The notes below the pieces were generated by a model that ran no database searches, was not told where the DNA came from, and saw nothing but the letters and a program-made list of their open reading frames with translations. The position numbers and the translations under genes were made by a program. Source: a virus. Taken from it: a stretch of 21,201 nucleotides of DNA. Location of the stretch: IMG/VR virus record IMGVR_UViG_3300023198_001094, positions 1-21,201 of that record; one strand, written 5' to 3'. Shown piece by piece: positions 439 to 14,036 of this stretch (position 1 is its first letter; every line of letters begins with the position of its first letter).

Positions 439-1194
439 CTATTGTCCCATCCAGCCACCTGACAGAGACTCGGTTGTTGCGAACCTTCTCAGGTGATCCA
501 ATTCTTCTGTGGGTTTCTCTTTAGGCGGTACCGGCTTGGCTCTCTCTAATCCAGACATCACCAGGTACCTCATACAGTCCATTAAATGGTCGTCTTTCTT
601 TACAATCTTGCCTTTATCATCCCGGGCGTAGAATCTCAGCTCTTCGAAGAAAGGTAGCAGACTCTGAAACACCTTCAGCCTGCCTTCGTTGAATGCGATC
701 CAGACTTTATAGATCCCAGCCTCAACCGATTTGTTCGGGAGCTCGATATCCAGGCCGTGATCATTCTTGTAAATATCAATCATCTTGCTGCCGTCTTTTT
801 GATTGACAGCGGCCGCATCACCTACGCCGGCTATCCACTCTCCTCGCGCCTTTATCGCCTTGGCGTGCGTCTCAGGCTCAGCCTGGCCGCGTTTGTAGCA
901 CGAATACAGATTAATCACGCCGGTATCAGGATCTTCGGCGCCCCAGATACAAGAAGTCCAATTCCACCCGACATCCAGAGCCCAGACTCTTTTATAGTGT
1001 TCAGGTATGGGAAAATCCGGAACAGTGATGGCAGACTCCTCTATAGGATAGATTAGCCCCGACCCAAGCGACGGTATCCCTTTGGACCGCGCCTCTCGCT
1101 GATACGGTGGCAGAGTCGCGAGTAGATCAGCCTTGTCCTTTGCGCTGAGGTGTGGAACCTCATCCCATGATACTTGAGCGAACCATTTGGACAT
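439..1194 (-). CDS. Terminase large subunit, C-terminal nuclease half (split gene)
   Basis: This is a 251-residue protein that carries only the RNase H-like nuclease of a phage terminase large subunit, the enzyme that cuts concatemeric DNA at the prohead portal. The start is KWFAQVSWDEVPHL (residues 3-16), a segment that in intact terminases follows the ATPase domain. Next come PPYQREARSKGIPSLGSG (29-46) and the first acidic motif ALDVGW with D74. A second acid is in VGDAAA (D126), followed by the typical VEAGIYKVW (158-165) and the last acidic cluster DDHLMD (201-206). I chose the ATG at 1194 because GGAAGG sits just upstream. A longer in-frame reading from 1395 is only a shadow of the preceding gene. 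The ATPase half lies 10 kb away at 11202-11969. The split leaves no evident loss of domain sequence. Confidence 0.93.
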   Translation of the reverse strand: MSKWFAQVSWDEVPHLSAKDKADLLATLPPYQREARSKGIPSLGSGLIYPIEESAITVPDFPIPEHYKRVWALDVGWNWTSCIWGAEDPDTGVINLYSCYKRGQAEPETHAKAIKARGEWIAGVGDAAAVNQKDGSKMIDIYKNDHGLDIELPNKSVEAGIYKVWIAFNEGRLKVFQSLLPFFEELRFYARDDKGKIVKKDDHLMDCMRYLVMSGLERAKPVPPKEKPTEELDHLRRFATTESLSGGWMGQ

Positions 1195-1195
1195 A

Positions 1196-1417
1196 TTATC
1201 CTTCCGCTGTGTCCAAACGAGAATCACCGTTAATGACTGTTGCCGACTTGGATTCTGATTCTTTGGTTTCCAGTGTCTGTCCAGGCTTTGCACCGTACTT
1301 GGTGGCCGTGGCATAAAAAACACTTTGTAATTTCTTCTCGTCCCACTTCGGGTGTTTCTTGCGAAGAGATTCCATAACCTCTTCACCCTTCCCACCGAAA
1401 TATCTCGATACAGGCAT
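1196..1417 (-). CDS. Small conserved-type phage protein (73 aa)
   Basis: A 73-residue protein that opens MPVSRYFGGKGEEVMESLRK. This resembles the short phage proteins of the form SRYFGG-KG-x-VM-x-SM that sit among structural genes. The middle section VFYATATKYGAKPGQ fits the same type. The tail is polar and ends GDSRLDTAEG. It ends 1 bp before the terminase nuclease half, whose SD lies inside its 3' end, so the two are likely translationally coupled. The start at 1417 has a purine-rich GAAAGAAG upstream. Function is unknown. The family likeness is from memory of phage genomes and was not searched. Confidence 0.8.
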   Translation of the reverse strand: MPVSRYFGGKGEEVMESLRKKHPKWDEKKLQSVFYATATKYGAKPGQTLETKESESKSATVINGDSRLDTAEG

Positions 1418-1418
1418 A

Positions 1419-1856
1419 TTATTTCTTCTTTCTTGGTTTCGGCATCAGTACACCGAATATCTGCGTCGTCAGCGCATCGTGTAAATACGCAAACGCCTCA
1501 TTAGATCCGCCCTTCACGTACGGTATACCTGCAAGATCCATGATAGCGAACGTGACGTGCAGGAATTCATGGGCTATGTACCCCATGTTCATCGTGGTCC
1601 ACTCAAATGATTCGAGTGTAACAACGAGGATGAGAGCACCATGATCATCGATTACCGGAACCACTCTCCCAAAGTAATCGCTGAAGTCTACTTTCGTAAG
1701 CATGTCAATAGCTTTTTGAGACAGGCTTAATCCGGTCCTGCGCTTTATTACCTTTGCAATATCCTTACCTTGCATTCCTATGCAAAGCACCACTCCGACC
1801 GGGTATACCGAGATATCCATGAAGTGGATAAGTGGGTTCTTGGTATTGTAGATCAC
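1419..1856 (-). CDS. Phage HExxH-type putative zinc protease-like protein
   Basis: A 145-residue protein with the zinc-binding motif HEFLH at residues 96-100, preceded by a hydrophobic strand and followed by EAFAYLHDALT (120-130). The Glu and the extra His there could serve as a third ligand. This arrangement is typical of small phage proteins annotated as HExxH metallopeptidase-like. The start shown is a GTG in a GTGA overlap with the preceding gene. An ATG at 1820 (MDISVYPV) is an alternative without a clear SD. It ends in a basic PKPRKKK tail. Activity is unproven: many phage members of this group have no known substrate. It lies among virion genes, so prohead or tail maturation is possible but not shown. 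Confidence 0.78.
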   Translation of the reverse strand: MIYNTKNPLIHFMDISVYPVGVVLCIGMQGKDIAKVIKRRTGLSLSQKAIDMLTKVDFSDYFGRVVPVIDDHGALILVVTLESFEWTTMNMGYIAHEFLHVTFAIMDLAGIPYVKGGSNEAFAYLHDALTTQIFGVLMPKPRKKK

Positions 1857-2212
1857 CTTCGTCCGCGTCTGCTTGGACGGGATTGGGTGCGACGGGCTGT
1901 CCCGGGACGCGATGGAGCCGAACGCTTCGCTACCGGTCTCGATCTCGCTGGTACTGTCCCTGTTGCCCTGAGAACTTTTTTGGCCGCACCACCGATTACA
2001 CTGCCCCTGGAAACAGGTTTACCTACGCGGGTGATAGGCTTTGCCGGGAGTTTCCTGATCCCTGGACCCAGACGTTGTTTAGGTACGCCAATGGTAACTC
2101 TTCCCTTTAGTCCTGGACCTTTGCCTGGTACCTTGCTGCCCTTTAGGGCTTTCGATGCTACACTCTTCACTGCTCTCCTCATTCGTTTACCTGCAAGTGC
2201 TGTTCCAATCAT
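1853..2212 (-). CDS. Highly basic Arg/Lys/Pro/Gly-rich small protein
   Basis: A 119-residue protein made almost entirely of Lys, Arg, Pro, Gly, Ala, Ser, Thr and Val, with very few acidic residues. Examples are KGPGLKGRVTIGVPKQRLGP and the C-terminal RRTQSRPSRRGRR. It has no signal peptide or membrane segment. The composition resembles the tails of linker histones or other nucleic-acid-condensing proteins. The ATG at 2212 follows GAGGATATT, a good SD. The stop overlaps the GTG start of the next gene by 4 bp. The opposite strand has open frames as well, but orientation, SD and operon packing favour this one. Role is inferred only: a packaged DNA-binding protein is possible. Confidence 0.7.
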   Translation of the reverse strand: MIGTALAGKRMRRAVKSVASKALKGSKVPGKGPGLKGRVTIGVPKQRLGPGIRKLPAKPITRVGKPVSRGSVIGGAAKKVLRATGTVPARSRPVAKRSAPSRPGTARRTQSRPSRRGRR

Positions 2213-2221
2213 AATATCCTC

Positions 2222-2497
2222 TTAGCTTTCGTAGGTGTCCAGACGGGAGCCGCCTGAATGATGTGATGTTTCTTTTCCCTCTTTCTGTACCGACTCGTTG
2301 GAAGGGAATAGTCCTTTGATATGGTTGCCGAGAGCTGCAGGGTTATTGAACACGGATTTCCTGCGGAGACTGTCGTAGTCCTGGTGACAGCCGCACGGCT
2401 CACCTTTTTCGCACTTACATTTGGGAGCCTTGTGCTGTACAATCACCATAAACCCACCGTCGTCAGCAGGCTCGATTTCAATTCTCTGAATTTTCAT
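2222..2497 (-). CDS. Small Cys-rich conserved-type phage protein (91 aa)
   Basis: A 91-residue protein. The N-terminal strand IQRIEIEPADDGGFMVIVQH, the later FNNPAALGNHIKGLF and the short length match a common class of tiny phage proteins found between structural genes. Between these parts lies a Cys cluster, CKCEKGEPCGCH (residues 27-38), that could bind a metal. The C-terminus GGSRLDTYES resembles the tail of the 73-residue protein at 1196-1417. The ATG at 2497 is preceded by GGAG. Function is unknown. Confidence 0.8.
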   Translation of the reverse strand: MKIQRIEIEPADDGGFMVIVQHKAPKCKCEKGEPCGCHQDYDSLRRKSVFNNPAALGNHIKGLFPSNESVQKEGKETSHHSGGSRLDTYES

Positions 2498-2513
2498 TTA
2501 CAGCTCCTTTGAT

Positions 2514-4115
2514 TTATTGTCCTCTTATCCGTAAGCTTGAAGCCGCTCCAACAGCAGGTGCGGCTGGAGTATATTCAAAAGCGCCCATCTCTGGAGCAGT
2601 TCCTAGAAGTACAACTGTGCCGGACGAGTCTTTGTAGAGCCAAACCTCATCATCCTCACTTCGGGTAATCCCTACCGATAGTGTTATCGTATCAGTGCCG
2701 TAATTTATGGAAGAGATCTGAGCCGTATTCCCTACAGTACCCACAGCAATCTGATCTGGATCAATACCAGCCCAACCGTCCTGAAAGAAACTGGCATCAT
2801 CCACAATAAGAGATGTGCCACTACCTGAATCACCCGCAGCTACCTCGGTTAAGTGTCCGCCTGTATTGATGGCAGGAGAGGCAGCTTGCAAGGTCCAGTC
2901 AGAGGCCGGATTCGTGAAGTCCGGATTGTCATTCAGAACCGCATTCGCTTCGTCTGATATGGGAGAAACCCATGTCCTTGTCCCTCCGGTCTGAAAAGCA
3001 AGATTATAGTCATGATCTGTATTAGTGCCGATTCCAAAACCAATATAGGGAGAACCGGACTGAGCATCATACATCAGGTTATTAAGTGCACTCGAATTCT
3101 CAGATTTGGCTAATGTAAAGGCGGATGTTCCAACCACCGCACTTGACACTAAGGTATTATTGTACATCTTGTACTTCTGCTGAGAACTTGCTGCGGTGCC
3201 GTCAGTCAGGTAGAAGCTACTACCTATATTATAGGTATTATTGTATCGAATGATAATATTTGTAAGCCCACCACAACTATCTGCTCCTATATTTATCAGG
3301 CCAAAGTGTACGTTGTAGTCCGGCACATCGTACATATAGTTATTCTCAATCAGTAGATAATCAGCCGCTTGAGCAGCAGGATTTGTACCTGTACAGTAAG
3401 ACTGAAAGCCATCTATATGTGTTCCTGAAGCTGGAGTACCATCATAACCAGAAGTCTCACTCTCAAGAGAGTCATGGAAGGTGTTATTTCTTAAAACATT
3501 ATACTCACCAAAGATATTCGTGAAGTCGGCTGTGTGTTGAATATCATTGCCTTCAATAAGAGCATTGTCACACCAACAGGCAATGCCGATAGAACGTCCA
3601 CCTGTATAGTCGGGAGAACCGGTGTTGGCATCGCCTATCCCGTTAAACGTATTGTCCTTCACATGAAGGTAGATAGTCTTCGCCCTACCGCTAAATTGAT
3701 TACCTCTAATTCCTCCCGCCGTGGTGTCAGTAAAGCTACAGTTCTGTATGGTATTATACTCTGAGGTCGAAACAGTAATACTCTCTAGGCTATCATCCGT
3801 CATGCCTGAATGAGTAAAGGCCAAACCGTCAATTACAATCCAATCCCGATAGCCGATATTGAAGTTTCTGACAACCGGAGATTGTCCCGGTTCCTTGATG
3901 AAAGAGATGGGACTACCATTTGTACCAGAGTTAGCTGGAGTCGGACGTTCATCATAAGTACCGTTGAAGATCCAACAGGTATCTCCAGCGACAGCAGCAG
4001 TGGCACAGCCCTGAATCGTAGTGTAATCTCCACCGCCAGCCGCAATCACGTCATACTCAGTTGCAAGTACCGGAACAGCGAATAAGAGCATCAGTGCGAG
4101 TAATAGTTTCTTCAT
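2514..4115 (-). CDS. Secreted right-handed beta-helix protein
   Basis: A 533-residue protein. The N-terminus MKKLLLALMLLFAVPVLA is a classic Sec signal peptide with a likely cleavage after VLA. After it comes DYTTIQGCATAAVAGDTCWI with GTYDERP, the usual opening of a parallel beta-helix (pectate-lyase or chondroitinase-B fold). Many short Asn/Ile-rich rungs follow, for example IENNYMYDV and IIRYNNTYNI. This fold is common in phage tailspikes and in polysaccharide lyases. No catalytic residues can be assigned by eye. It overlaps the stop of the previous gene as TAATG and is the last of three consecutive genes with signal peptides. It may be an exported polysaccharide-binding or degrading protein, or an appendage protein. 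Confidence 0.85.
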   Translation of the reverse strand: MKKLLLALMLLFAVPVLATEYDVIAAGGGDYTTIQGCATAAVAGDTCWIFNGTYDERPTPANSGTNGSPISFIKEPGQSPVVRNFNIGYRDWIVIDGLAFTHSGMTDDSLESITVSTSEYNTIQNCSFTDTTAGGIRGNQFSGRAKTIYLHVKDNTFNGIGDANTGSPDYTGGRSIGIACWCDNALIEGNDIQHTADFTNIFGEYNVLRNNTFHDSLESETSGYDGTPASGTHIDGFQSYCTGTNPAAQAADYLLIENNYMYDVPDYNVHFGLINIGADSCGGLTNIIIRYNNTYNIGSSFYLTDGTAASSQQKYKMYNNTLVSSAVVGTSAFTLAKSENSSALNNLMYDAQSGSPYIGFGIGTNTDHDYNLAFQTGGTRTWVSPISDEANAVLNDNPDFTNPASDWTLQAASPAINTGGHLTEVAAGDSGSGTSLIVDDASFFQDGWAGIDPDQIAVGTVGNTAQISSINYGTDTITLSVGITRSEDDEVWLYKDSSGTVVLLGTAPEMGAFEYTPAAPAVGAASSLRIRGQ

Positions 4116-4750
4116 TAATTGCCTACCCCCAAAAGTAATATTCCGGAATCACCACTTCCTCCAGCAGCAGCCTCATAAATAGCATAGAGTGATGTAGTAT
4201 AAACGCCGGATGTATTGGTTTCCCAATCAGGCTCCGTAGGCCAAGTGGAGTAGGTTACATCTGTCCTAAGAGATAGTCCACCCGTAGTGTCTGCGCTTAA
4301 CCTCATATCATTACTACCGGACTCACCTATCATCGCAAGCCAGTAATCAGTTCCGCCCGTTAGTTGGGGTTGAGTCCCGTAAGTATGATAATAAAGTGTA
4401 TAGGAACTGCCGTCGATTGTAACCTCAGTGGATTCTGAATTTTCAACCATATCCTCAGGACAGTCATTAACATTATCATCCGTGAATATAGCGAACTTTG
4501 CACCGAGAGTTCCTGTGGCAATTTCATACAGGTAAGCACCGATTTCCGTTATGTTATATGGTCCGCTTCCGGGCATGGTAAACCTCTCAGCCCTTGAGCG
4601 CATAACGGAACCAGTATCGGATATAAGCACATAATCAGCTCCAAACCGAGCATCGGGTCTTACTGTTAAAAATCCCTGTCCAGCAGCAGCCCACACCAGA
4701 ACTGCGAAACAGAGAATCAGTACTGCTGTGAGCAGTTTATTTCTGAACAT
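4115..4750 (-). CDS. Exported beta-rich protein of unknown function
   Basis: A 211-residue protein. Residues 1-22 (MFRNKLLTAVLILCFAVLVW) form a strong signal peptide, with a probable cleavage after WA. The mature part is beta-strand-like and rich in Gly, Ser, Thr and Tyr, with features such as ITEIGAYLYEIATGTLGAKF and GGTDYWLAMIG. The layout recalls beta-sandwich domains of extracellular or anchor-type proteins, but no named family is certain. It ends SGILLLGVGN. Its start overlaps the end of the upstream gene by 14 bp, so it belongs to the same message. No enzyme motif is visible. Confidence 0.8.
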   Translation of the reverse strand: MFRNKLLTAVLILCFAVLVWAAAGQGFLTVRPDARFGADYVLISDTGSVMRSRAERFTMPGSGPYNITEIGAYLYEIATGTLGAKFAIFTDDNVNDCPEDMVENSESTEVTIDGSSYTLYYHTYGTQPQLTGGTDYWLAMIGESGSNDMRLSADTTGGLSLRTDVTYSTWPTEPDWETNTSGVYTTSLYAIYEAAAGGSGDSGILLLGVGN

Positions 4751-5903
4751 AGGTTATCCACCCATCAACATTTGCAGTGCCGCCCTGTAGTAAGCAGAGA
4801 TCCTCATTTGCGGTGTTGGTCTGGAGATCATTAATTAGAAATCCGTTACCGTCAGCTGGTAGTGAGATCACGCCAGTAAGAAGACCCCGAGATGTTCCAC
4901 AGGTTGTACCGGTACCCTCAGCAAACTGCGCTGTTTCATCTGCGTCAGTGGCTAACATCCCACCACAGATATAAATCTTCTGACCGGCAACCTGCGCTAT
5001 TAATTCTGCAGTTGCCGCCTGATTTATTGGGAGTGTGATCTTAGGACTGTTAAGACATGGGTCATAAGCATTCGCTACAAGTGTAGCTTGATTAGCGTCC
5101 AGATGTAATGCACCAGCATCACCGGTCTCTATAACAGTGGGGGTTGTCTCAAAGATCCCACCTGTATAAACGGGATTATTGGTCTGGGCTGCATCAACGG
5201 CAACGTCGGTTACAAGATTGTCAACTGTCACATCTCCTATGTCCACACCTGAGTTGGCAGCAAGCTTTCCTATGGCGTTTGTACCGGCTGGTAGGGCAGC
5301 TACAATATCAACCTGCTGCTCAGAACCTGCTACTGTACCGAAGAGAACAGAAGTATCAGCATCTATTGTGGTTAGTAAAGCATTAGCAGCGTCCTGCTTG
5401 GCTTCAGTAGATCCGCCTGCTGCAGCAGCTATGGTAACTACACCGGGAGCCGGCCGCATGGAGAAATACATCCGTATAGTACCGGTAGCACCGGCGTCGG
5501 TCTGATTAGACCAAACTACAGTAAAGCGGCTATCGACTACACTGGCGAGTGTATCTGCATAAGCTATCTCTGTGTCGGCGGTGTCTCGATCAGTCAGGTT
5601 TCCGTCCATCATATCAAGACCGCTGGAGTTGTTGATCACCAGGTCATAATCATCTGTAGGAGCTGTGGCACCAGGATCAGTCATCACGGCGACGAGATAC
5701 CAACCGTCGATACTATTGTATAGATTCTGATCGAGTTGGGTACTGGTAACGGTACCTGCAGACGAGTCGCCCACCCATTTGAAATCTATAATGCGGGTGT
5801 CCTGGGTGCTCATGGCAGTGGTCTGCCTGACGGTATCGTCTGTCGCGAAAGCACTAGGCGTAAACAGCAACGCCATAATCAGTATTGCAAATAACTTTTT
5901 CAC
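4737..5903 (-). CDS. Exported phage appendage-like repeat protein
   Basis: A 388-residue protein starting with GTG at 5903 (SD AGGAG upstream). MKKLFAILIMALLFTPSAFA is a Sec signal peptide. The mature chain contains GGSTEAKQDAANALLTTID and LPAGTNAIGKLAAN followed by GVDIGDV. These are modules seen in phage baseplate, fibre and surface proteins, and the second is shared with the gene at 8440-9738. The C-terminal part holds several Cys residues (DPCLNSP, IYICGG, GTTCGTS, DLCLLQ) that could pair as disulfides after export. This fits the signal peptide. Exact role is unknown. Exported host-surface or adhesion function is an inference. Confidence 0.82.
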   Translation of the reverse strand: MKKLFAILIMALLFTPSAFATDDTVRQTTAMSTQDTRIIDFKWVGDSSAGTVTSTQLDQNLYNSIDGWYLVAVMTDPGATAPTDDYDLVINNSSGLDMMDGNLTDRDTADTEIAYADTLASVVDSRFTVVWSNQTDAGATGTIRMYFSMRPAPGVVTIAAAAGGSTEAKQDAANALLTTIDADTSVLFGTVAGSEQQVDIVAALPAGTNAIGKLAANSGVDIGDVTVDNLVTDVAVDAAQTNNPVYTGGIFETTPTVIETGDAGALHLDANQATLVANAYDPCLNSPKITLPINQAATAELIAQVAGQKIYICGGMLATDADETAQFAEGTGTTCGTSRGLLTGVISLPADGNGFLINDLQTNTANEDLCLLQGGTANVDGWITYVQK

Positions 5904-5904
5904 T

Positions 5905-6162
5905 TTACTTTTCTCCTTTTGGCGGGAGCGCCAACTCTATCGCCAATGATATATCTCGCCTATCTGATTTTGGGAATTGCTTAACAAGACGACCGTAGAC
6001 TTGGTGACGTTTCCACTCGCCTTCCTTGCTGTACGGATCGAACTGGTCTGTGAAAGACGACGCGGCTTTGATTATCAGTCTGATAGCCGGGGTAACAAAA
6101 AAGCACTCGATCCCGTAGCGTGTAAAGATCCATCGAGCTAGTTTAAGTAGGATATTCTTCAT
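5905..6162 (-). CDS. Small phage protein of unknown function (85 aa)
   Basis: An 85-residue protein opening MKNILLKLARWIFTRYGIE with a moderately hydrophobic stretch (VTPAIRLIIKAASSF). It ends in the amphipathic RRDISLAIELALPPKGEK. The combination of a xxxAxxRHQVYGRLVKQFP-like middle and a DISLAIELAL end is familiar from small phage proteins near tail-fibre genes. I cannot attach a function. GGAGG lies 9 bases before the ATG, overlapping the stop of the upstream 42-residue gene. The downstream GTG begins 1 bp after its stop. Confidence 0.8.
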   Translation of the reverse strand: MKNILLKLARWIFTRYGIECFFVTPAIRLIIKAASSFTDQFDPYSKEGEWKRHQVYGRLVKQFPKSDRRDISLAIELALPPKGEK

Positions 6163-6174
6163 TACTCTAACCTC

Positions 6175-6303
6175 CTATAACGGATACCAAAGACCACGCA
6201 TGGGTGTCATGATGGGATTACCTGTAGCAGCTTCTCCTCCAGCAGATTCAGGAAAGAACCTGGGAGCGAAGTACCGGCCTGCAAAATATCGTCTCGGGAA
6301 CAT
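6175..6303 (-). CDS. Tiny aromatic/Arg-rich phage protein (42 aa)
   Basis: A 42-residue protein that begins MFPRRYFAGRYFAPRFFPES and ends RGLWYPL. The [FY]-rich RYFAGRYFAPR pattern recurs in very short phage ORFs next to appendage genes. The ATG at 6303 has AGGAG at optimal distance. The stop TAG is part of the GGAGG of the next gene, so the two are coupled. Role is unknown. The sequence is too short for a domain. Confidence 0.8.
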   Translation of the reverse strand: MFPRRYFAGRYFAPRFFPESAGGEAATGNPIMTPMRGLWYPL

Positions 6304-6313
6304 ATGCTATCTC

Positions 6314-8335
6314 CTATGTGGCGTCTGGAGTGACAGCTGTACGGTTGCCGTCTGCGTCAACTGTTGCTGTGATGCGATCTTTACTGTCACCGATATCTCG
6401 AATCGCTACTGTTGTCGTAGCGGCTCCTGAGAGCTTACCGACCAGAGCGGACAGGATAAGACGAAGAGCCTGACGAGGTGTATAACTGGTTTCAATACCG
6501 TTAGCGCGATCCAGGAGGGCATCGGCATTTTCGTTACTGACATCTGCAGCTTGTCCCGCAGCGTCCCGGGCATTGGCGGCATATGTAGATGAGCTTATAC
6601 TGGCGTCAGCAGGAGAAACCTCAGTGAGATGATCACCATCGCCACCGGCTTCGGTTAAATGATCTCCGTCGCCTCCAGCTTCTGTAAGGTGGTCGCCATC
6701 CCCACCAGCTTCAGTCAGACCGACACCGGCAGCACCGATTTCAGCTGTGTCATCTAGTATGTCATTGAGATCCAGTGCTGTTTGTGCTGTCGCCTGGACA
6801 TGAGTCACATTCACATCGGCATATGCGGCATTCATGATATAGAAAACATCATCTGCAACAGGAGTGAATGAGAACGCTCTATCGACAAACACTTCCTTGG
6901 TTGCGCCTATGTAGTCGACAATGCGCCGTACCTCAGAATGGCTATCTGTCGCGTCTTCCAGGACTATAACCATACCGTTGTAAGCGTCGTTGTTACCTAT
7001 TCCGGTATCGAGAATGAACTGCGAGGCACTGGTAGCTGATGCGATATCACCGTGTACAAGATGTTGTTTGGATACATTATAACCAAGCGTGTTTTCATCA
7101 TGTCCAGAATCTGCACGACTCCATACGGCTTCTTGTATAGCGTCGGCGGTTAACCCTGCAGCCTCTTGAGCGACTGATGTTATATTAACGTAATCGCAAT
7201 ACCAGTCATCTGTTACAGTGATAGATTCTGAAGTGAATCTAATCTTAACCTCGCCATCACTGACCTGGCGCATATTGTTTGTTAACGGATATTGGAATGT
7301 CTGATTGGCGACACCGTTATTGAAGTCGTTGGCCGAACTGGATAATTGGACATATGCGGCTAGGTTATAGTCGTATGCCCAAACCTGTACTGTTCTAAGC
7401 GCACCAGAGCCGAAGTAACCCGTCACTGTAATTTGATCTGGAACCCGCCCGGTACCAATATTAAACGTCAGGTCTACGTTAAGTCCAAAACCTCCCACAG
7501 CGGCGCCGGCAGGAGCGGTTTGATAGTATGTGGTATTAACAGAAGCTGTGTCAGCATACGTCCCTGATTCGAGAGTACCGGTTGTTTCGTTGTTAGCCGC
7601 CGCTGAGTGATTCTGAGGATTGGCATCTGTAATAGCATCCCTGACAGCCTCAAGAGAATCTGTGGTATTGACAAATGTACTCCAGTCCGGCGTTGCGCCC
7701 TTGGATGCAAGTTTGGCTATGATTGAGCTATCTACTACATCATCTGCATCGGCTACAGCCACAAGATGATCGAGCTTGATTTCATCCAGGACCTTGCGGA
7801 CTGCGAGTGCGATGATGTTCGTGGCATAAGCGGTACTGCCCACATCTGCAGCAAAAGTAGCGTTGTCGATTGCGGCATCGGCTATAGCAGCAGCAGTGAC
7901 CGCATTCGCCGCCATTGCAGTTACATTAACATCAAGAGTGTCACCGCCGTCGATAAGAGCGTTGTTGAGTGCAGCAGCCCTGAAACCTATAACAGGTCCG
8001 ATCCAGGGTAGGATTCCTGTAGCGTATCCACTGAACCATCCAAACCCCTCTGTGTCGTTGTTGATTGAAGCTCCGCTATCGGCAGGGATCTCGATTGAGT
8101 ACATCCCGTTGCCCTGGTTCACCCAGTCGTAGTCTCCACCGGTATCGGTAGGGGTTACTGCGGTTTGGCTCATCACACCTGCGGTCGTTACGAAGTTCCA
8201 CAACAGATCCAGACCAGCCTGATCGTATGTGACCGACTCTTCTCGGGCCTTAAAATCAGTGTCGTCTATCAGAGCCGCCTTGCATACGGGTACTTCCGAC
8301 AAGGCTGCATCTACATCCATCCATAGATCAGGCAT
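6314..8335 (-). CDS. Large phage appendage/fibre-type structural protein
   Basis: A 673-residue protein. The N-terminus has DFKAREESVTYDQAGLDLLW and WVNQGNGMYSIEIPADSG, typical of modular phage surface proteins. Ala/Val/Asp-rich helices, VTAMAANAVTAAAIADAAID and VRKVLDEIKLDHL, follow. A Gly/Asp repeat (three 10-residue units) precedes the last ~60 residues, which contain RQALRLILSALVGKLSGA and RDIGDSKDRITATVDADGNR. That C-terminal segment recurs at the end of many phage fibre-like proteins. There is no signal peptide, unlike the three genes downstream. The ATG at 8335 is preceded by AAGGAG. It is probably an adhesin, a fibre component or a scaffold for one. Confidence 0.85.
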   Translation of the reverse strand: MPDLWMDVDAALSEVPVCKAALIDDTDFKAREESVTYDQAGLDLLWNFVTTAGVMSQTAVTPTDTGGDYDWVNQGNGMYSIEIPADSGASINNDTEGFGWFSGYATGILPWIGPVIGFRAAALNNALIDGGDTLDVNVTAMAANAVTAAAIADAAIDNATFAADVGSTAYATNIIALAVRKVLDEIKLDHLVAVADADDVVDSSIIAKLASKGATPDWSTFVNTTDSLEAVRDAITDANPQNHSAAANNETTGTLESGTYADTASVNTTYYQTAPAGAAVGGFGLNVDLTFNIGTGRVPDQITVTGYFGSGALRTVQVWAYDYNLAAYVQLSSSANDFNNGVANQTFQYPLTNNMRQVSDGEVKIRFTSESITVTDDWYCDYVNITSVAQEAAGLTADAIQEAVWSRADSGHDENTLGYNVSKQHLVHGDIASATSASQFILDTGIGNNDAYNGMVIVLEDATDSHSEVRRIVDYIGATKEVFVDRAFSFTPVADDVFYIMNAAYADVNVTHVQATAQTALDLNDILDDTAEIGAAGVGLTEAGGDGDHLTEAGGDGDHLTEAGGDGDHLTEVSPADASISSSTYAANARDAAGQAADVSNENADALLDRANGIETSYTPRQALRLILSALVGKLSGAATTTVAIRDIGDSKDRITATVDADGNRTAVTPDAT
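6620..6718 (-). repeat. 30-bp tandem repeat encoding AGGDGDHLTE
   Basis: Three full 30-bp units and part of a fourth lie in the large appendage gene, at 6620-6649, 6650-6679 and 6680-6709, with a tail to about 6718. They encode repeated [TS]EAGGDGDHL. The units differ mostly at third codon positions, so the protein repeat is kept while the DNA has drifted. Confidence 0.9.
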
Positions 8336-8344
8336 AGTATCTCC

Positions 8345-8440
8345 TTAATTCTGTTGCGCGTACTGATACCAGGGATTTCCAGATGGTGCGTCGATACTTC
8401 CCCAGGAGAATTTAAGATTAATCACAAGTAATAAAGTCAT
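8345..8440 (-). CDS. Tiny ORF, 31 aa
   Basis: An ORF of 31 codons, MTLLLVINLKFSWGS then IDAPSGNPWYQYAQQN. It fills the otherwise empty gap between the two large appendage genes. Its ATG overlaps the preceding TAA as TAATG with GGAG upstream, and the SD of the next gene (AAGGAG) directly follows its stop. Placement is that of a real translationally coupled gene. The length is too short for certainty and no function can be given. Confidence 0.55.
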   Translation of the reverse strand: MTLLLVINLKFSWGSIDAPSGNPWYQYAQQN

Positions 8441-9738
8441 TAGACTCCTCCGGTCACTGCTGCTGTGTAGCCGCTAACCATAATGCTGTGGTAAGTGACG
8501 GTCGTACTGGTCACAGCCAGTAATGTATTGGCAGTTAATTTAATTGGAGTTTTAAGATGTATGGTAGCACCACCATAGGCACCAGGAAAGATCTTCAGTT
8601 TTACTGAGCCGCCAGAGCCGTCAAGTAGTGAGATATAACCAGTAGCTCCACCAGTGGTGACTCCGTTGCTTATTACGATGTCTGTGATGAACAGACTTAA
8701 ATTCGCCCCTGGTGCTGCTTTGAGTGTGGCGTTGGTTTGGGCTGAACTGTAGTCGCCTACGGCATCCCACCGGAATGGATGGGTTGTTTCTACATACTGA
8801 CGACCGTAACCGTCTGCGATACCATCAACCCTGTCATTCTCTGCGCTGACTGTTGTGCCTGGGGCTGTGCCGTCGAAGAGCTTGTTCTTGAACCCTACTT
8901 TGGTCGGATTGCCTGAGTCTGCTACATCATGGGCTACATCACCAGCTACCACGACATCGTTGTTAGAGCCGAGGTCTGCGGTAACAGAGCCGTCTACTGT
9001 TATGACGTTTCCACCGTCCTGAATGTTTACAGCAGCACCGGCAGCAGCATTATCGATAGTGACATTATGCCCATCGGCTAACTGTTTGGCTTCAGTAGCA
9101 AACCCGGCGATCGGGCTGCTCTCAGTTGTCGCTATAGGAGTCATACTAGCGATTCCCTGAACCGTCACTACCTCGCCATCTACGGCGGCTCCAGCGGATT
9201 GTGACCCCCTGACAAATACTTCATTGGTAGATATATTGTCTACTGTGACATTGTGACCGTCCGCAAGCTGAAGTGCTGAAGTGGCTGCACCTGCCGGGAG
9301 TGCGCTTGAGAGAACATCGACATCACCGATATCAACACCGGTATTCGCTGCGAGTTTACCAATGGCATTGGTGCCGGCTGGTAATGGAACATTTGTCGCC
9401 AGCGTCACTCGTGGAACTGTCACGCCATCAACACCTGTACTAGCGGCAATTCCAGCCTGGCCGACAATGGGATTAACCTTCGCCCTGTCCGACTCATCCC
9501 AGTCGTCCATTATCTCAACAGCAGTTTTAATCGCGGCCGCACTGGCTTCAGTCATGTTGAGGTCTGCTGCGGTTGGCTGTTGCACCTCCAGCCCTTTGGC
9601 GTCTGCCAGTATGCCGGTTGCGACACCGTCACCAGAATAGGAGAGTTTCACCCGCTGGACTTGTCCAGCAGCGCCACAGTCATCGGTGGCACAAACCTCG
9701 CCGCCAGTTCCTGCGTCAAGTTGTACATTGTCTGCCAT
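8440..9738 (-). CDS. Phage surface/appendage repeat protein
   Basis: A 432-residue protein starting MADNVQLDAGTGGEV. I place the start at 9738, where GGGAG lies upstream; a longer frame to 9837 only overlaps the previous gene. It contains ATSALQLADGHNVTVDN and ATEAKQLADGHNVTIDN, an internal repeat. It also has LPAGTNAIGKLAAN followed by GVDIGDV, shared with the exported protein at 4737-5903. The C-terminal part is beta-rich (VVTYHSIMVSGYTAAVTGGV-like strands). Such modules are typical of phage structural proteins exposed on the virion. No signal peptide is present. Confidence 0.85.
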   Translation of the reverse strand: MADNVQLDAGTGGEVCATDDCGAAGQVQRVKLSYSGDGVATGILADAKGLEVQQPTAADLNMTEASAAAIKTAVEIMDDWDESDRAKVNPIVGQAGIAASTGVDGVTVPRVTLATNVPLPAGTNAIGKLAANTGVDIGDVDVLSSALPAGAATSALQLADGHNVTVDNISTNEVFVRGSQSAGAAVDGEVVTVQGIASMTPIATTESSPIAGFATEAKQLADGHNVTIDNAAAGAAVNIQDGGNVITVDGSVTADLGSNNDVVVAGDVAHDVADSGNPTKVGFKNKLFDGTAPGTTVSAENDRVDGIADGYGRQYVETTHPFRWDAVGDYSSAQTNATLKAAPGANLSLFITDIVISNGVTTGGATGYISLLDGSGGSVKLKIFPGAYGGATIHLKTPIKLTANTLLAVTSTTVTYHSIMVSGYTAAVTGGV

Positions 9739-9743
9739 AATAT

Positions 9744-10478
9744 TTAATCTCCCATTCCCATCATTTTGAGTACTGAGTTGTCCGTTGACGGTGCCGCTCC
9801 CCCCGCCTCTTTGAATGTTGCACCGCAACCGCACCACGGCTGTGTTTGGGTATATGTATGCGTTAGGGTTTTATCCCCTGAGCCGACTGGAATATCATAA
9901 TTAGTGCAACAACCATTACCACCCGAATCCCATGAAGTAGTTGCAAGCGTTCCACCAAATGCACTGTCTGAAACAGATGTTATACCATTTGCTTTATTGA
10001 CAGTAACGGCTGCGCAAAATTCTCCACCCTCAGATGGAGTTACCACAACATCATTAACAGTAGCGCTAGTTTGATTGTCGTATTCGCTTATATCGTCTAG
10101 TGGTGCAGTCTGGTCAACGCCGCTAAACCACTCCACCCCAACACGAGTTGAATTACCAGCAGTACCCGCTGGAGAGGAAAAGGTGATTACTATGTCATAG
10201 GTTCCATCGTCTATCGTTCCATCCGACTCAAGCACATACCACATTTCTGTAACTAAATCGCTTGCACTATGAATGGCTTCAACTGCACGAGTCATGGAAA
10301 CGCCATTCCAAGTTACACCCGAAATGACAAAAGTGGAACCTGAAGCTATTCCAACAGTTACAACTCCCATACCATCGGTAAGTGCATCAACCGCTACACT
10401 ACCTACAGTTAAGGAACCATCGACACCCTTTGCGTCAGAGTTTTCAAGTTCGACAGATCCAATGACAGTAATCGCCAT
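9744..10478 (-). CDS. Beta-rich phage structural-type protein (244 aa)
   Basis: A 244-residue, Gly/Ser/Thr/Val-rich, low-Lys/Arg protein. It contains NSTRVGVEWFSGVDQTAPLD with the pattern of a beta-sandwich or lectin-like domain. A later segment with paired Cys (GGNGCCTNYD) follows, then WCGCGATFKEAGG. It ends KMMGMGD. The ATG at 10478 is embedded in the end of the preceding gene, and the next gene starts 6 bp after its stop. No family is certain. Context says virion or appendage protein. Confidence 0.78.
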   Translation of the reverse strand: MAITVIGSVELENSDAKGVDGSLTVGSVAVDALTDGMGVVTVGIASGSTFVISGVTWNGVSMTRAVEAIHSASDLVTEMWYVLESDGTIDDGTYDIVITFSSPAGTAGNSTRVGVEWFSGVDQTAPLDDISEYDNQTSATVNDVVVTPSEGGEFCAAVTVNKANGITSVSDSAFGGTLATTSWDSGGNGCCTNYDIPVGSGDKTLTHTYTQTQPWCGCGATFKEAGGAAPSTDNSVLKMMGMGD

Positions 10479-10831
10479 TATAATATAACCTCTGGTATTT
10501 CTTCGCCTTGAGCAAATGAGGCCACTCTAAACCTTGCCCTCATACGTCCATTCATATTCGCAATAATCCGGCACTGTTGCCCGGAGTTATCACCGTAACT
10601 CATCCCCGCTACGAATTGCCCGACCTCATCAAAGCGTTGAACTGTTCGACAGAGGACATTACTATCCTTGGATATTTCAATAGTAATATCGCAGAAAGCA
10701 CCCACAGAAAGGATAGATACAATATCAAAGATGGCCTTAACGTCATTAGTAGTCAGATCATCGAAGTTGACAGTTTCATCAGCTTGATAATCATTGTAGT
10801 TCCGTTCTGGTGCTTGAAATAGTGTTTGCAT
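10478..10831 (-). CDS. Small phage structural-type protein (117 aa)
   Basis: A 117-residue protein, MQTLFQAPERNYNDYQADET then beta-rich CDITIEISKDSNVLCRTV and a basic end RMRARFRVASFAQGEE. It overlaps both neighbours by a base or more, as is usual in this operon. The middle looks like a small beta-barrel or sandwich. No named family is recognised. A head or tail accessory role is inferred from its place between the 123-residue and the 244-residue structural genes. Confidence 0.75.
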   Translation of the reverse strand: MQTLFQAPERNYNDYQADETVNFDDLTTNDVKAIFDIVSILSVGAFCDITIEISKDSNVLCRTVQRFDEVGQFVAGMSYGDNSGQQCRIIANMNGRMRARFRVASFAQGEEIPEVIL

Positions 10832-11202
10832 TACACCTCTATGTAATTAATGCAGCCGCCGATCTGGACGCTGCCACCGAGGTTGAGGTTGAGGGCTTCA
10901 CCGGCTACAGTCTCGAAGAAGAAACCATTCGGACCCCAGTAGTCTGAATGTCCTGAGCCTGCGAGCCAGGTCGCGGCCGGGAGTAGGGCTGTCGATGCAC
11001 TCTTCCAGGTGAGGGCGAGATCCGATACCAGTGGAGCGAAGTGGATACCGATAACGCGGATCTTCTTGGTTTCCACAGCTGCTACTATTTCCTGGTCGCC
11101 GGCAGTGTCTTCGTCGATGACTGCCTGTTTGATCTGGAATTCGCCTACCTCGGACTGAGATGTGTTGCCGAGCTTGACACGGTCGTGTGAGCTACCTGGC
11201 AT
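10831..11202 (-). CDS. Phage structural-type protein with GEALNLNL motif (123 aa)
   Basis: A 123-residue protein with QEIVAAVETKKIRVIGIHF followed by a beta strand series and a C-terminal ETVAGEALNLNLGGS and NYIEV. This pattern (V-A-A-V-x-x-K-K-I-R-V ... GEALNLN) belongs to a common small phage virion-type protein. Its ATG overlaps the stop of the terminase ATPase half as TAATG. The SD AAAGGAG lies inside that gene's last codons, so it is coupled to terL translation. The exact virion position is unknown. Confidence 0.8.
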   Translation of the reverse strand: MPGSSHDRVKLGNTSQSEVGEFQIKQAVIDEDTAGDQEIVAAVETKKIRVIGIHFAPLVSDLALTWKSASTALLPAATWLAGSGHSDYWGPNGFFFETVAGEALNLNLGGSVQIGGCINYIEV

Positions 11203-11969
11203 TAGACTACTCCTTTATATGATTCGAGAAAACCTTTGACTACTTCTGTCACGCCCTGGAGCGGAGTGAATGTGAGAGCGATCTGGCCTTTGGTTGTCAT
11301 GGTGCGTACACAGCATTCGGCATAGACATCTTCGGGAGGTTCCTCATCGCACCAGATGAATTCGATTGCACGTCCGGTGAATGCAGCCCAGCCCTGCTCG
11401 TATGACTTGAAGATGATGGTTGAGTTGGCTCCGCTGACGTGTTTGACGTCGACTGATTCGTAGGCCCGGGGGATTCCGGCTCGTCTTGGTGGAGCTCCTG
11501 AGATGTATCGGTGCGGGATCATGCCGGTACCGAGTTTATCCCAGGCGCCCAGGAGTTCGAACTGGTTCACGTCCCGGACGTTGTAAGAAGAATCGTTGAC
11601 TGCCCAGGCCAATATGGGCTTGTTGAATCTGTGTCCAGGCCACCAGTCAGGATAAAGTCCAGTGGCATGCAGGGTGATCTCAAAGGCAGCTGCGATTGTC
11701 TTGCCTGTTCTGTTAGCTGCAAGGAGACAGCGTTCCCTGTGAGCTGATCCGTCGCAATTCGGTGGACATGTGTCCATCGGCTCGTGTTTGCCGCCTGCAG
11801 TGAAGAATTTGACATGCTTGGGGTAGAGCTCACGACGATAGATTCCTTTGTCCAGGAAGAATGCGTCCTGGCGATTGTTCTTCCGGGCTGCGTCGAGGGC
11901 TGTGAGCTCGTCCAGGTGCTTGAGCCAGAACTCCTCGTTGTCTTTGATGCGGGTTGCGATGTCAGTCAT
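11202..11969 (-). CDS. Terminase large subunit, N-terminal ATPase half (split gene)
   Basis: A 255-residue protein that is the DNA-packaging ATPase of a terminase large subunit and stops before the nuclease. Walker A is LAANRTGKT (residues 83-91), Walker B with the catalytic acids is IEFIWCDEE (202-210), and the coupling motif is TFTPLQG (233-239). It ends VTEVVKGFLESYKGVV with a stop exactly where intact homologues continue toward the nuclease domain. I chose the ATG at 11969 (overlapping the end of terS as ATGACTGA) over a GTG at 11984. There is no intein-like extension after residue 239. The partner half is at 439-1194. The two together would make a normal-length terminase of about 500 residues. 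Confidence 0.94.
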   Translation of the reverse strand: MTDIATRIKDNEEFWLKHLDELTALDAARKNNRQDAFFLDKGIYRRELYPKHVKFFTAGGKHEPMDTCPPNCDGSAHRERCLLAANRTGKTIAAAFEITLHATGLYPDWWPGHRFNKPILAWAVNDSSYNVRDVNQFELLGAWDKLGTGMIPHRYISGAPPRRAGIPRAYESVDVKHVSGANSTIIFKSYEQGWAAFTGRAIEFIWCDEEPPEDVYAECCVRTMTTKGQIALTFTPLQGVTEVVKGFLESYKGVV

Positions 11970-12495
11970 TAGGGTCCTGCTCACGGACGGCCTTGATGGC
12001 TTTGACCGTGGTCAGCAGCTCGGTTAGATCCTCGTCGGTCATCTCGTCACGTCCAGGCATCTTCTTGAGGATCGCGTCTTCCTTCTCAACCTCGTGTGTG
12101 CCTTGTGAATCCCCGTACCGTTTCTTGAAATCACCCTTAATGATAGTGTTCAGTAGACTATCGCTGTACACCTGCTTCTGCCCGACAACCTCGCCTTGAT
12201 AGTAGATATCTTCCGTAACTCCTTGTGACGCACGACGATACGCCTCGTGAAGCCGTCTGTACTTGGCCAGCTCGTCCGCGAGATGATAACAGGCCGCATA
12301 CTCCACACTGGCCTTCATCCAGTGGTAATGTGACGTCCAAGCGACCCCTGCAGCCTCCGCAGCCTGGGTAATTATACCAAAACACTCCACTAGGGCTATC
12401 AAAAAGCCCTGTTGGTTGACTTGAAGACCGCTTCCTACAATTTCTTCAATGAATTTATCGATCTTTTCTTGCTCGATATCGACAGCGCTGCTCAT
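11962..12495 (-). CDS. Terminase small subunit
   Basis: A 177-residue protein directly upstream of the terminase ATPase half, overlapping it by 8 bp. It has the helix-turn-helix of small terminases, IITQAAEAAGVAWTSHYHWM (residues 41-60). This is followed by the characteristic YRRASQGV, IYYQGEVVGQKQVYSDSLL and KGDFKKRYGD segments, and an acidic C-terminal region. Its role is to recognise viral DNA and load it on the large subunit. The ATG at 12495 overlaps the stop of the preceding gene as ATGA. Confidence 0.93.
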   Translation of the reverse strand: MSSAVDIEQEKIDKFIEEIVGSGLQVNQQGFLIALVECFGIITQAAEAAGVAWTSHYHWMKASVEYAACYHLADELAKYRRLHEAYRRASQGVTEDIYYQGEVVGQKQVYSDSLLNTIIKGDFKKRYGDSQGTHEVEKEDAILKKMPGRDEMTDEDLTELLTTVKAIKAVREQDPND

Positions 12496-13158: not shown

Positions 13159-13566
13159 ATGGGAAAGCGTTTCACGAAGGGCCAGAAAGTTTATTACTTT
13201 TCTACCAATTTCGCAGACATACCGCTAGACGATAGGGTAGTCGAGTACTACGCTATTATCGAAAGGACTGTAGATGCCTGTGGAGCAAAGCAGATGACAT
13301 TTGAGGATCATGGGTGTGACGGGATCTACGGACGACGTCAGGGGAGTCAGCATCCTCATTACTTCGCAACGGTTGACGAGGCTCTTGATCACGCCGAAGA
13401 GCATGTAGGAGAAACAGACCGGAGAACCTGGAAGACACGCACAGAAACAATCCCGATGTTTGGTGCGCTTCTTGGAATCTATACGGATCGAGACCACGCA
13501 GCGTTTGATGAATTCGAAAGAGTCCGAAACGATTTAACCTGGCAGGGAAGGACGGCATGCAAGTGA
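13159..13566 (+). CDS. Hypothetical early-type protein (135 aa)
   Basis: The first plus-strand gene after the repeated operator block, with GGAGGA before the ATG at 13159. A frame extension to 13087 lies inside the promoter and is rejected. The 135-residue protein begins MGKRFTKGQKVYYFSTNFAD. It has a mixed composition with a long acidic DEALDHAEEHVGET helix and no Cys/His metal motif. The fold may be a small SH3-like beta domain (KGQKVYYF) plus helices. Function is not recognised. Its end overlaps the metallopeptidase start by 10 bp. Confidence 0.75.
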   Translation: MGKRFTKGQKVYYFSTNFADIPLDDRVVEYYAIIERTVDACGAKQMTFEDHGCDGIYGRRQGSQHPHYFATVDEALDHAEEHVGETDRRTWKTRTETIPMFGALLGIYTDRDHAAFDEFERVRNDLTWQGRTACK

Positions 13567-14036
13567 CTTACTTGAAGGAAGAGAAGCATGAGATAGGAGT
13601 CGACGAGATTCAAGATGCTGTCGAGTTGTTGAGTGAGCATTTCAAGATACCGGTTCCTCATGTGAAGGTGACTTGGAACCAAGGGAGTAAATGTAGCTAC
13701 AGGAGATCCTATTGGGGTTTCTGGTCTGAGATGAGTATCAGCAGAGATGACTGGCACGGGATTACAGATTGCGTGCTTCATGAGTTTACGCATGCACTGA
13801 GAGGGTTCAGATCGGGAAAGCACTATCATGATGTGAGATTCTTCCTGGCGCTCAAGGAAGTGTGTGAAGTGTGGCTGGGCGATGCCGAATGGTTCAGGTG
13901 GGACAGGGATTATAATCCTATCTGGAAGCAGGCGGTGCGGCATAGGTTGACCAGGAGGACTTGGTTCAGGCATACTCATAAATTCGGGCCGTTTCTGTCT
14001 GCTGAAAAGATAGCGGCATATGGGACAGTTAAATAA
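13557..14036 (+). CDS. SprT-like / HExxH zinc metallopeptidase domain protein
   Basis: A 159-residue protein. The helix CVLHEFTHALRGF contains the zinc motif HEFTH (residues 75-79). A third ligand is likely in KHYHDVRFF (His89 or His91), as in SprT/WLM-type peptidases. Before the motif a strand plus a Tyr/Trp-rich loop (SYWGFWSEMSIS) form the substrate wall usual for this fold. The C-terminus is basic and aromatic. Phages and bacteria use this fold in DNA-protein crosslink or general proteolysis, but the substrate here is unknown. It overlaps the preceding gene (ATG inside its last codons). Confidence 0.75.
   Translation: MQVTYLKEEKHEIGVDEIQDAVELLSEHFKIPVPHVKVTWNQGSKCSYRRSYWGFWSEMSISRDDWHGITDCVLHEFTHALRGFRSGKHYHDVRFFLALKEVCEVWLGDAEWFRWDRDYNPIWKQAVRHRLTRRTWFRHTHKFGPFLSAEKIAAYGTVK

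What the first reader, a model, noticed from the sequence alone, without database searches (positions are those of the whole stretch)
439..11969. Large terminase split into separate ATPase and nuclease genes 10 kb apart
The ATPase half (11202-11969) has Walker A, Walker B and the TFTPLQG coupling motif and ends cleanly. The nuclease half (439-1194) begins where intact homologues continue after that point and keeps its three acidic motifs. Each half has its own start and SD-like sequence, and no part of the domain pair seems lost. Introns or inteins interrupting terL are known, but there is no intein or intron core in the visible ends. A bipartite terminase would need the two proteins to find each other at the portal.
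Basis: partly seen in the sequence, partly recalled or inferred. Interest (0 to 1): 0.88.

Follow-up and report, generated by a model that had tools for sequence, protein, structure and literature searches.

The report
Phage packaging motor made from two genes
This phage, like dozens of relatives found here, encodes the enzyme that pumps DNA into its capsid as two separate proteins (an ATP-burning core, and a lever-plus-nuclease) whose genes lie 10,000 bases apart, so the motor must be assembled from two chains instead of the usual one.

Summary
The ATPase half of a P22-gp2/Terminase_6-type large terminase (11202-11969, minus strand) and its nuclease half (439-1194, minus strand) are clean separate genes. 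Nothing is missing, and no intact terL was found in the 30.4-kb record. It is not an oddity of this contig: the same break, at the same junction, occurs in 75 of 194 non-redundant relatives compared (biased sampling, not a prevalence), from metagenome phages, prophages of cultured bacteria and a finished Endozoicomonas plasmid. Gaps range from ATGA overlaps through single inserted genes to 1-7.5 kb; 10 kb is the largest. Supported branches force at least 12 split/intact changes. Both halves are under purifying selection in other split pairs (dN/dS mostly 0.05-0.25). One relative has reversed gene order. No intron, intein or frameshift explains the window. One refinement: the break lies between the ATPase core and its lid subdomain, so the second chain is lid + linker + nuclease. 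Best explanation: recurrent fission giving a bipartite TerL that reassembles non-covalently, the open junction then taking up homing endonucleases and cargo genes. I found no description of a bipartite TerL in the papers searched. Assembly of the two chains is inferred, not shown.

The parts
11962..12495 (-). Small terminase subunit (TerS), directly upstream of the ATPase gene
   Evidence: phrog_4044 terminase small subunit E=1e-19; TerS lies just upstream of TerL in 13 intact and 6 split relatives
11202..11969 (-). terL part 1: ASCE ATPase core, ends 16 residues after the coupling motif
   Evidence: Terminase_6N 5e-15; AF2 pLDDT 92; Foldseek best hits D6E TerL, E down to 2.8e-5
11697..11726 (-). 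Walker A (LLAANRTGKT) with P-loop Arg
   Evidence: N, G, K invariant in all 75 split rows; Arg in 72 of 75
11340..11366 (-). Walker B and catalytic Glu (IEFIWCDEE)
   Evidence: D and E invariant in 75/75 split and 119/119 intact rows
11253..11273 (-). Coupling motif TFTPLQG
   Evidence: second T and G invariant in 75/75 split rows
439..1194 (-). terL part 2: lid subdomain + linker + RNase H-like nuclease
   Evidence: Terminase_6C 7e-9; A1 profile vs P22 gp2 nuclease 4dkw E=3e-51 from residue 48, vs D6E TerL from residue 12 = D6E 199
1054..1194 (-). Lid strand, lid helices and start of linker (MSKWFAQVSWDEVPHL...ARSKGIPS) carried by the nuclease chain
   Evidence: Aligns to D6E residues ~199-235; the D6E lid includes Y213, M216, R224 and its linker is 230-241 (PMC5727402); AF2 secondary structure of intact L026
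973..975 (-). Nuclease acidic residue D74
   Evidence: Invariant in all 194 rows
817..819 (-). Nuclease acidic residue D126
   Evidence: sequence and alignment A1
577..591 (-). Nuclease acidic residues D202 and D206 (KKDDHLMD)
   Evidence: D202 in 193/194 rows, D206 in 173/194
1195..11201 (-). Interval between the two halves: about 13 same-strand genes, mostly orphans; one weak beta-helix protein (2514-4115)
   Evidence: GC3 0.33-0.51 over 2514-10831 against 0.57-0.61 for the two terL halves

Best explanation
The phage encodes a bipartite large terminase. A once single terL of the P22-gp2/Terminase_6 type was cut in the flexible loop between the ATPase core and the lid subdomain. Chain 1 (255 aa) is the ASCE ATPase core with P-loop, Walker B and coupling motif. 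Chain 2 (251 aa) is lid + linker + RNase H-like nuclease. The two chains are made separately and probably meet non-covalently through the native core-lid interface at the portal, forming a ring of core/lid-nuclease pairs that pumps and cuts DNA like an ordinary TerL; the P-loop arginine-to-lid coupling, normally within one chain, then runs between two. The same fission arose repeatedly in related phages, probably starting from overlapping ATGA genes or from homing-endonuclease invasion. Once the gene is open, the junction collects other genes, up to 10 kb here. Shown: two clean complete genes, the location of the break, recurrence, purifying selection on both halves in other split phages, independence of gene order and distance. 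Inferred: physical association, ring architecture, the cause of the first split, and function in this particular phage.
For: Clean halves with domain hits and own starts. Same junction in 75 of 194 non-redundant TerLs, with gaps from -3 nt (16 loci) to 7.5 kb plus the window at 10 kb. 31 of 77 loci in bacterial/archaeal genome assemblies that hold both halves are split. Finished circular Endozoicomonas plasmid with TerS, WP_262568764.1 (ATPase half) and WP_262568763.1 (nuclease half, called hypothetical), close to an N4-gp56-type capsid gene. FastTree: 30 split/intact changes, at least 12 forced by supported branches; ATPase-only 31/10, nuclease-only 33/14. dN/dS mostly 0.05-0.25 for both halves in split pairs; in closely related Acidovorax-type TerLs the gap varies -3, 915, 952, 2030, 2762 nt. 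Catalytic, coupling and lid residues as conserved in split as in intact rows. No residues lost. Reversed gene order in L101. AF2 puts the break in a low-confidence loop of an intact homologue.
Against: No experiment shows that the chains associate. In a few split pairs the ATPase half has a higher ratio (0.45-0.54, Azospirillum L272 pairs), which may be an alignment or frame problem. The window has no close relative here, so selection on its own two genes could not be measured and its sister lineage is unresolved. The record is a fragment without the portal gene, so another terminase elsewhere in the genome is not excluded. Sampling was biased toward split forms.
Confidence: 0.85

Rival explanations
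1. terL is interrupted by an intron (or pair of trans-spliced intron halves) and the mRNA is spliced to one reading frame, as reported for phage ICP1 and for Jug phages.
For: Spliced terL introns are documented: ICP1 (PMC10448857) and Jug phages (PMC12363816).
Against: No Rfam intron hit at gathering cut-offs in the window, nothing but chance hits at E<=10 around both ends, none in 20 other split loci. Each half has its own stop and start at the junction; many relatives overlap by ATGA; L101 has reversed order. A 10-kb intron with about 13 genes is unlikely.
Confidence: 0.05
2. The ATPase and nuclease halves carry split-intein pieces and are ligated after translation.
For: Inteins occur in this TerL group: L013 has Hom_end/Hom_end_hint and L030 LAGLIDADG_3 inside TerL, upstream of most of the ATPase domain; Mic1 TerL has two inteins (PMC7156551).
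Against: The ATPase tail is 16 residues after the coupling motif and the nuclease head 9 residues before the lid Trp, the same total as in intact proteins: no room for any intein piece. In L013 the insertion is at the P-loop, a different site.
Confidence: 0.01
3. Misassembly or chimera: two phages joined in the contig, or an intact terL broken by error.
For: Contig from an IMG/VR virus record; reads were not available; codon third-position GC differs between the interval and its flanks.
Against: An intact terL would not stop and restart precisely at the junction, so a chimera would only change the distance. Same architecture in isolate genomes and a finished plasmid. 16 separate -3 nt overlaps are not random errors.
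Confidence: 0.06
4. Decayed terL: the split is a step to loss, the phage is defective or uses another terminase.
For: Record incomplete; portal not in the contig.
Against: All catalytic and lid residues kept in the window; other split pairs at dN/dS well below 1 for both halves; the split recurs without loss of either half.
Confidence: 0.04

Closest known systems
P22 gp2 / Terminase_6-type TerL (EBPR podovirus 1 gp39, Chlorobiaceae phage CV-1-33 gene 3, P22 nuclease 4dkw, D6E TerL 5oe8)
   Same: Same ATPase core, lid and nuclease sequence families, 45-50% identical to EBPR podovirus 1 TerL; TerS gene upstream.
   Different: Those are single polypeptides (CV-1-33: 474 aa; L026: 478 aa); here core and lid-nuclease are separate genes.
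Genes-in-pieces ribonucleotide reductase of phage Aeh1 (nrdA split by mobE), split DNA polymerase 43A/43B, T4 topoisomerase with mobA insertion
   Same: Essential phage enzyme split into two polypeptides that reassemble without splicing; homing endonucleases between the pieces in three TerL relatives (PMC2988022).
   Different: Different enzyme; here no endonuclease in the window's interval, the split recurs at one junction in many phages, and the interval can reach 10 kb.
Intron-interrupted terL of ICP1 and Jug phages
   Same: terL appears as two or more ORFs in the genome (PMC10448857, PMC12363816).
   Different: Those are spliced at RNA level; no intron signature here.
phi29 gp16
   Same: From general knowledge and PMC7672431 (title and abstract): a packaging ATPase whose C-terminal domain is a vestigial nuclease, showing that the nuclease link can be relaxed.
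   Different: Single chain, nuclease vestigial; here the nuclease is kept, on another chain together with the lid.

Membership tests
Large terminase (TerL), Terminase_6 / P22 gp2-like | ASCE ATPase core with Walker A, Walker B + Glu, coupling motif | tested here: met
Large terminase (TerL), Terminase_6 / P22 gp2-like | RNase H-like nuclease with acidic active site | tested here: met
Large terminase (TerL), Terminase_6 / P22 gp2-like | Lid subdomain between core and nuclease | tested here: met
   present at the start of the nuclease chain:
Large terminase (TerL), Terminase_6 / P22 gp2-like | Core, lid and nuclease in one polypeptide | tested here: not met
   two genes 10 kb apart. Hence 'bipartite variant', not an ordinary member
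Large terminase (TerL), Terminase_6 / P22 gp2-like | TerS gene next to terL | tested here: met
   TerS adjacent to the ATPase gene:
Large terminase (TerL), Terminase_6 / P22 gp2-like | ATP-driven packaging and DNA cleavage | not testable with these tools
   needs biochemistry
Homing-endonuclease genes-in-pieces (Aeh1 nrdA type) | Freestanding homing endonuclease gene between the pieces | tested here: not met
   none found by Pfam or PHROGs in the window interval; met in relatives L121, L127, L159
Homing-endonuclease genes-in-pieces (Aeh1 nrdA type) | Two pieces reassemble to an active enzyme | not testable with these tools
   only indirect: selection and residue conservation in relatives
Intron-split terL | Group I or II intron in the interval | tested here: not met
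Split-intein protein | Intein halves at the broken ends | tested here: not met
   tail 16 aa, head 9 aa

The most novel reading that the evidence does not exclude
A widespread class of viral DNA packaging motors in which the lid, the lever thought to turn ATP hydrolysis into DNA movement, sits on a different protein from the ATPase core, so the ring is a two-component assembly with inter-chain mechanical coupling; it has evolved many times at one junction and lets the nuclease/lid chain be exchanged, regulated or replaced independently of the motor core.
Probability: 0.6. Interest if true: 0.82.

Novelty: new variant of a known kind. Interest (0 to 1): 0.72.

Why it matters
TerL is usually treated as one polypeptide and used as a single-gene marker for tailed phages. 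Here fission between motor core and lid recurs in many phages, in both metagenomes and cultured bacteria, while annotation can call the nuclease half 'hypothetical protein'. Competing packaging models disagree on whether lid movement, nuclease-domain movement or trans-acting fingers drive translocation (PMC5727402). A natural two-chain motor lets the lid-nuclease be added, left out, mutated or swapped without touching the core, so those models become directly testable. It also warns that TerL-based surveys can miss or mis-split such phages.

Tried and rejected
Intron search by Rfam in the window and 20 split loci: nothing relevant. Split intein: no room. Second intact TerL in the record: none found. 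PDB sequence search with the ATPase-half profile gave only a meaningless weak hit; fold comparison worked instead. NCBIfam named neither half. Annotated relatives with split TerL among isolated phages: those inspected are intact; the plasmid collection gave one split case and two intact ones. Finding a sister lineage of the window: unresolved; the first tree put L101 next to it, the larger tree did not. Homologues of the window's interval genes in the fetched loci: none at E<=1e-4; one 47-residue match to a Pirellulaceae prophage interval protein in a direct comparison. Papers on bipartite TerL: none found in ten searches of an open-licence library, so absence is not proof. L093 was dropped as a frameshift inside the ATPase; L209 is treated with caution because a tRNA lies in its interval.
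Full report
WHAT IS THERE. On the minus strand the window reads TerS (12495-11962), ATPase gene (11969-11202), about 13 genes over 10 kb, then a nuclease gene (1194-439). The ATPase gene matches Terminase_6N (E=5e-15) and the nuclease gene Terminase_6C (E=7e-9). The ATPase reading frame stops 16 residues after the coupling motif, and its stop overlaps the ATG of the next gene; the nuclease gene begins with its own ATG behind AAGGA, directly after the stop of the gene before it. Both edges are tightly packed operon edges without a scar. In intact relatives 21-38 residues (median 28; outliers 11 and 49) separate the coupling-motif glycine from the lid tryptophan; in the window 16+9=25 do, so nothing was lost.

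WHERE THE BREAK LIES. [quoted passage not shown] The profile of the nuclease halves aligns with D6E TerL from D6E residue 199 and with the P22 nuclease domain only from residue 48. In D6E the lid includes Y213, M216 and R224 and the linker is 230-241 (PMC5727402). So the second chain carries lid, linker and nuclease. An AlphaFold model of the intact homologue L026 (pLDDT 91) shows the break in a low-confidence loop, 230-238, before a strand and two lid helices; that model matches solved TerLs (D6E E=3e-21, P22 nuclease 2e-16, T4, Sf6, HK97). The window's ATPase half alone folds confidently (pLDDT 92) and its best match is D6E TerL. The lid motif W-D-x-x-P-H-L and Arg36 are as conserved in split as in intact proteins, as expected if the lid still works against the core across two chains (inference).

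IS IT REAL BEYOND THIS CONTIG. Searching IMG/VR and one bacterial/archaeal genome collection with both halves gave 249 usable loci including the window, 164 intact and 85 split; after removing near-duplicates 194, with 75 split. Because the alignment queries were made from split proteins, this ratio is not a prevalence. The gap between stop and nuclease runs from -3 nt (16 loci, ATGA-type overlap) through one or two small genes to 2-7.5 kb; the window is the extreme. Among 77 genome-assembly loci with both halves, 31 are split, including cultured Halomonas, Kushneria, Chromohalobacter, Acidovorax, Azospirillum, Vibrio, Acetobacter and Sphingopyxis. A finished circular plasmid of Endozoicomonas gorgoniicola has terminase small subunit, 'terminase family protein' WP_262568764.1 and 'hypothetical protein' WP_262568763.1, the latter being the nuclease half. 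L101 has the nuclease gene before the ATPase gene on the same strand.

HOW OFTEN IT AROSE. On a FastTree of 194 concatenated TerLs the state changes at least 30 times, and branches with support of 95 or more force at least 12; trees of the ATPase part and the nuclease part alone give 31/10 and 33/14. Changes may be splits or re-fusions. For 19 split rows the most similar row is an intact one, up to 72% identical. The window is 53% identical to its nearest row and its sister group is unresolved.

DO BOTH HALVES STAY FUNCTIONAL. In pairs of split phages dN/dS is mostly 0.05-0.25 for both genes. In Acidovorax-type prophages with nuclease halves 91-97% identical, the gap is -3, 915, 952, 2030 or 2762 nt: the insert changes while both halves are held. 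This could not be measured for the window itself for lack of a close relative.

WHAT SITS IN THE GAP. Of 60 interval ORFs from other loci, Pfam and PHROGs recognise three homing-type endonucleases (L121 HNH_3+NUMOD4, L159 HNH_3+AP2, L127 endonuclease VII), a HipA toxin-like kinase, BrnA antitoxins, a Dam methylase, tail collar and fibre proteins; most are unknown. The window's interval is almost all orphan genes, with one weak beta-helix protein, several apparent signal peptides, and lower GC3 (0.33-0.51 over 2514-10831) than the terL halves (0.57-0.61). This fits an insertion site for mobile endonucleases and cargo once terL is open; whether endonucleases caused the first split in any lineage is not shown.

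MECHANISM. Best supported: two-chain TerL reassembling non-covalently. Known analogues are genes-in-pieces enzymes such as Aeh1 NrdA, shown to be active, and split gp43, whose pieces co-purify (PMC2988022). Rivals: introns as in ICP1 and Jug phage terL (PMC10448857, PMC12363816) find no support in Rfam searches or gene layout; inteins have no room, and the inteins that do occur in this family sit elsewhere, at the P-loop in L013; assembly error cannot explain clean ends nor the finished replicon; decay is at odds with conserved residues and selection in relatives.

NOVELTY. Ten paper searches found spliced and intein-bearing terL but no bipartite TerL; the library lacks most subscription journals, so this is a limited negative. 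PHROGs already holds an ATPase-sized family (phrog_31467, 261 positions, function unknown) and a nuclease-sized one (phrog_5653, 199 positions) that match the halves best, so pieces of this class have been clustered before, apparently without the link being noted. I rate it a new variant of a known kind.

Noticed in passing
L013:6147-8756: TerL reading frame of 870 aa with an in-frame intein-like insertion (Hom_end_hint, Hom_end, LAGLIDADG_3) at the Walker A region; an intein site different from the fission junction. L030 (834 aa) has a LAGLIDADG_3 domain too.
   Followed up: partly
L101:9962-11788: Nuclease half encoded upstream of the ATPase half, i.e. terL pieces in reversed order on the same strand.
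   Followed up: partly
window 2514-10831: Interval genes with apparent signal peptides (4737-5903, 4115-4750, 2514-4115) and a weak beta-helix match, almost no database relatives; lower GC3 than the neighbouring terL genes.
   Followed up: partly
window 1419-1856 and 13557-14036: Two proteins with HExxH-like motifs (HEFLH, HEFTH), possibly small metalloproteases, one of them two genes upstream of the nuclease gene.
   Followed up: no
L209:12507-12579: tRNA gene inside the 5.3-kb interval between terL halves of a Bradyrhizobium prophage; might mark an attachment site or chromosomal DNA in the gap.
   Followed up: no
L138:9841-11376 (-): HipA-like kinase gene on the opposite strand inserted between terL halves.
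   Followed up: partly
G000 C1 just beyond window end (L046 about 5980): Run of N interrupts the family A DNA polymerase gene; the record is a scaffold with a gap right after the window.
   Followed up: no
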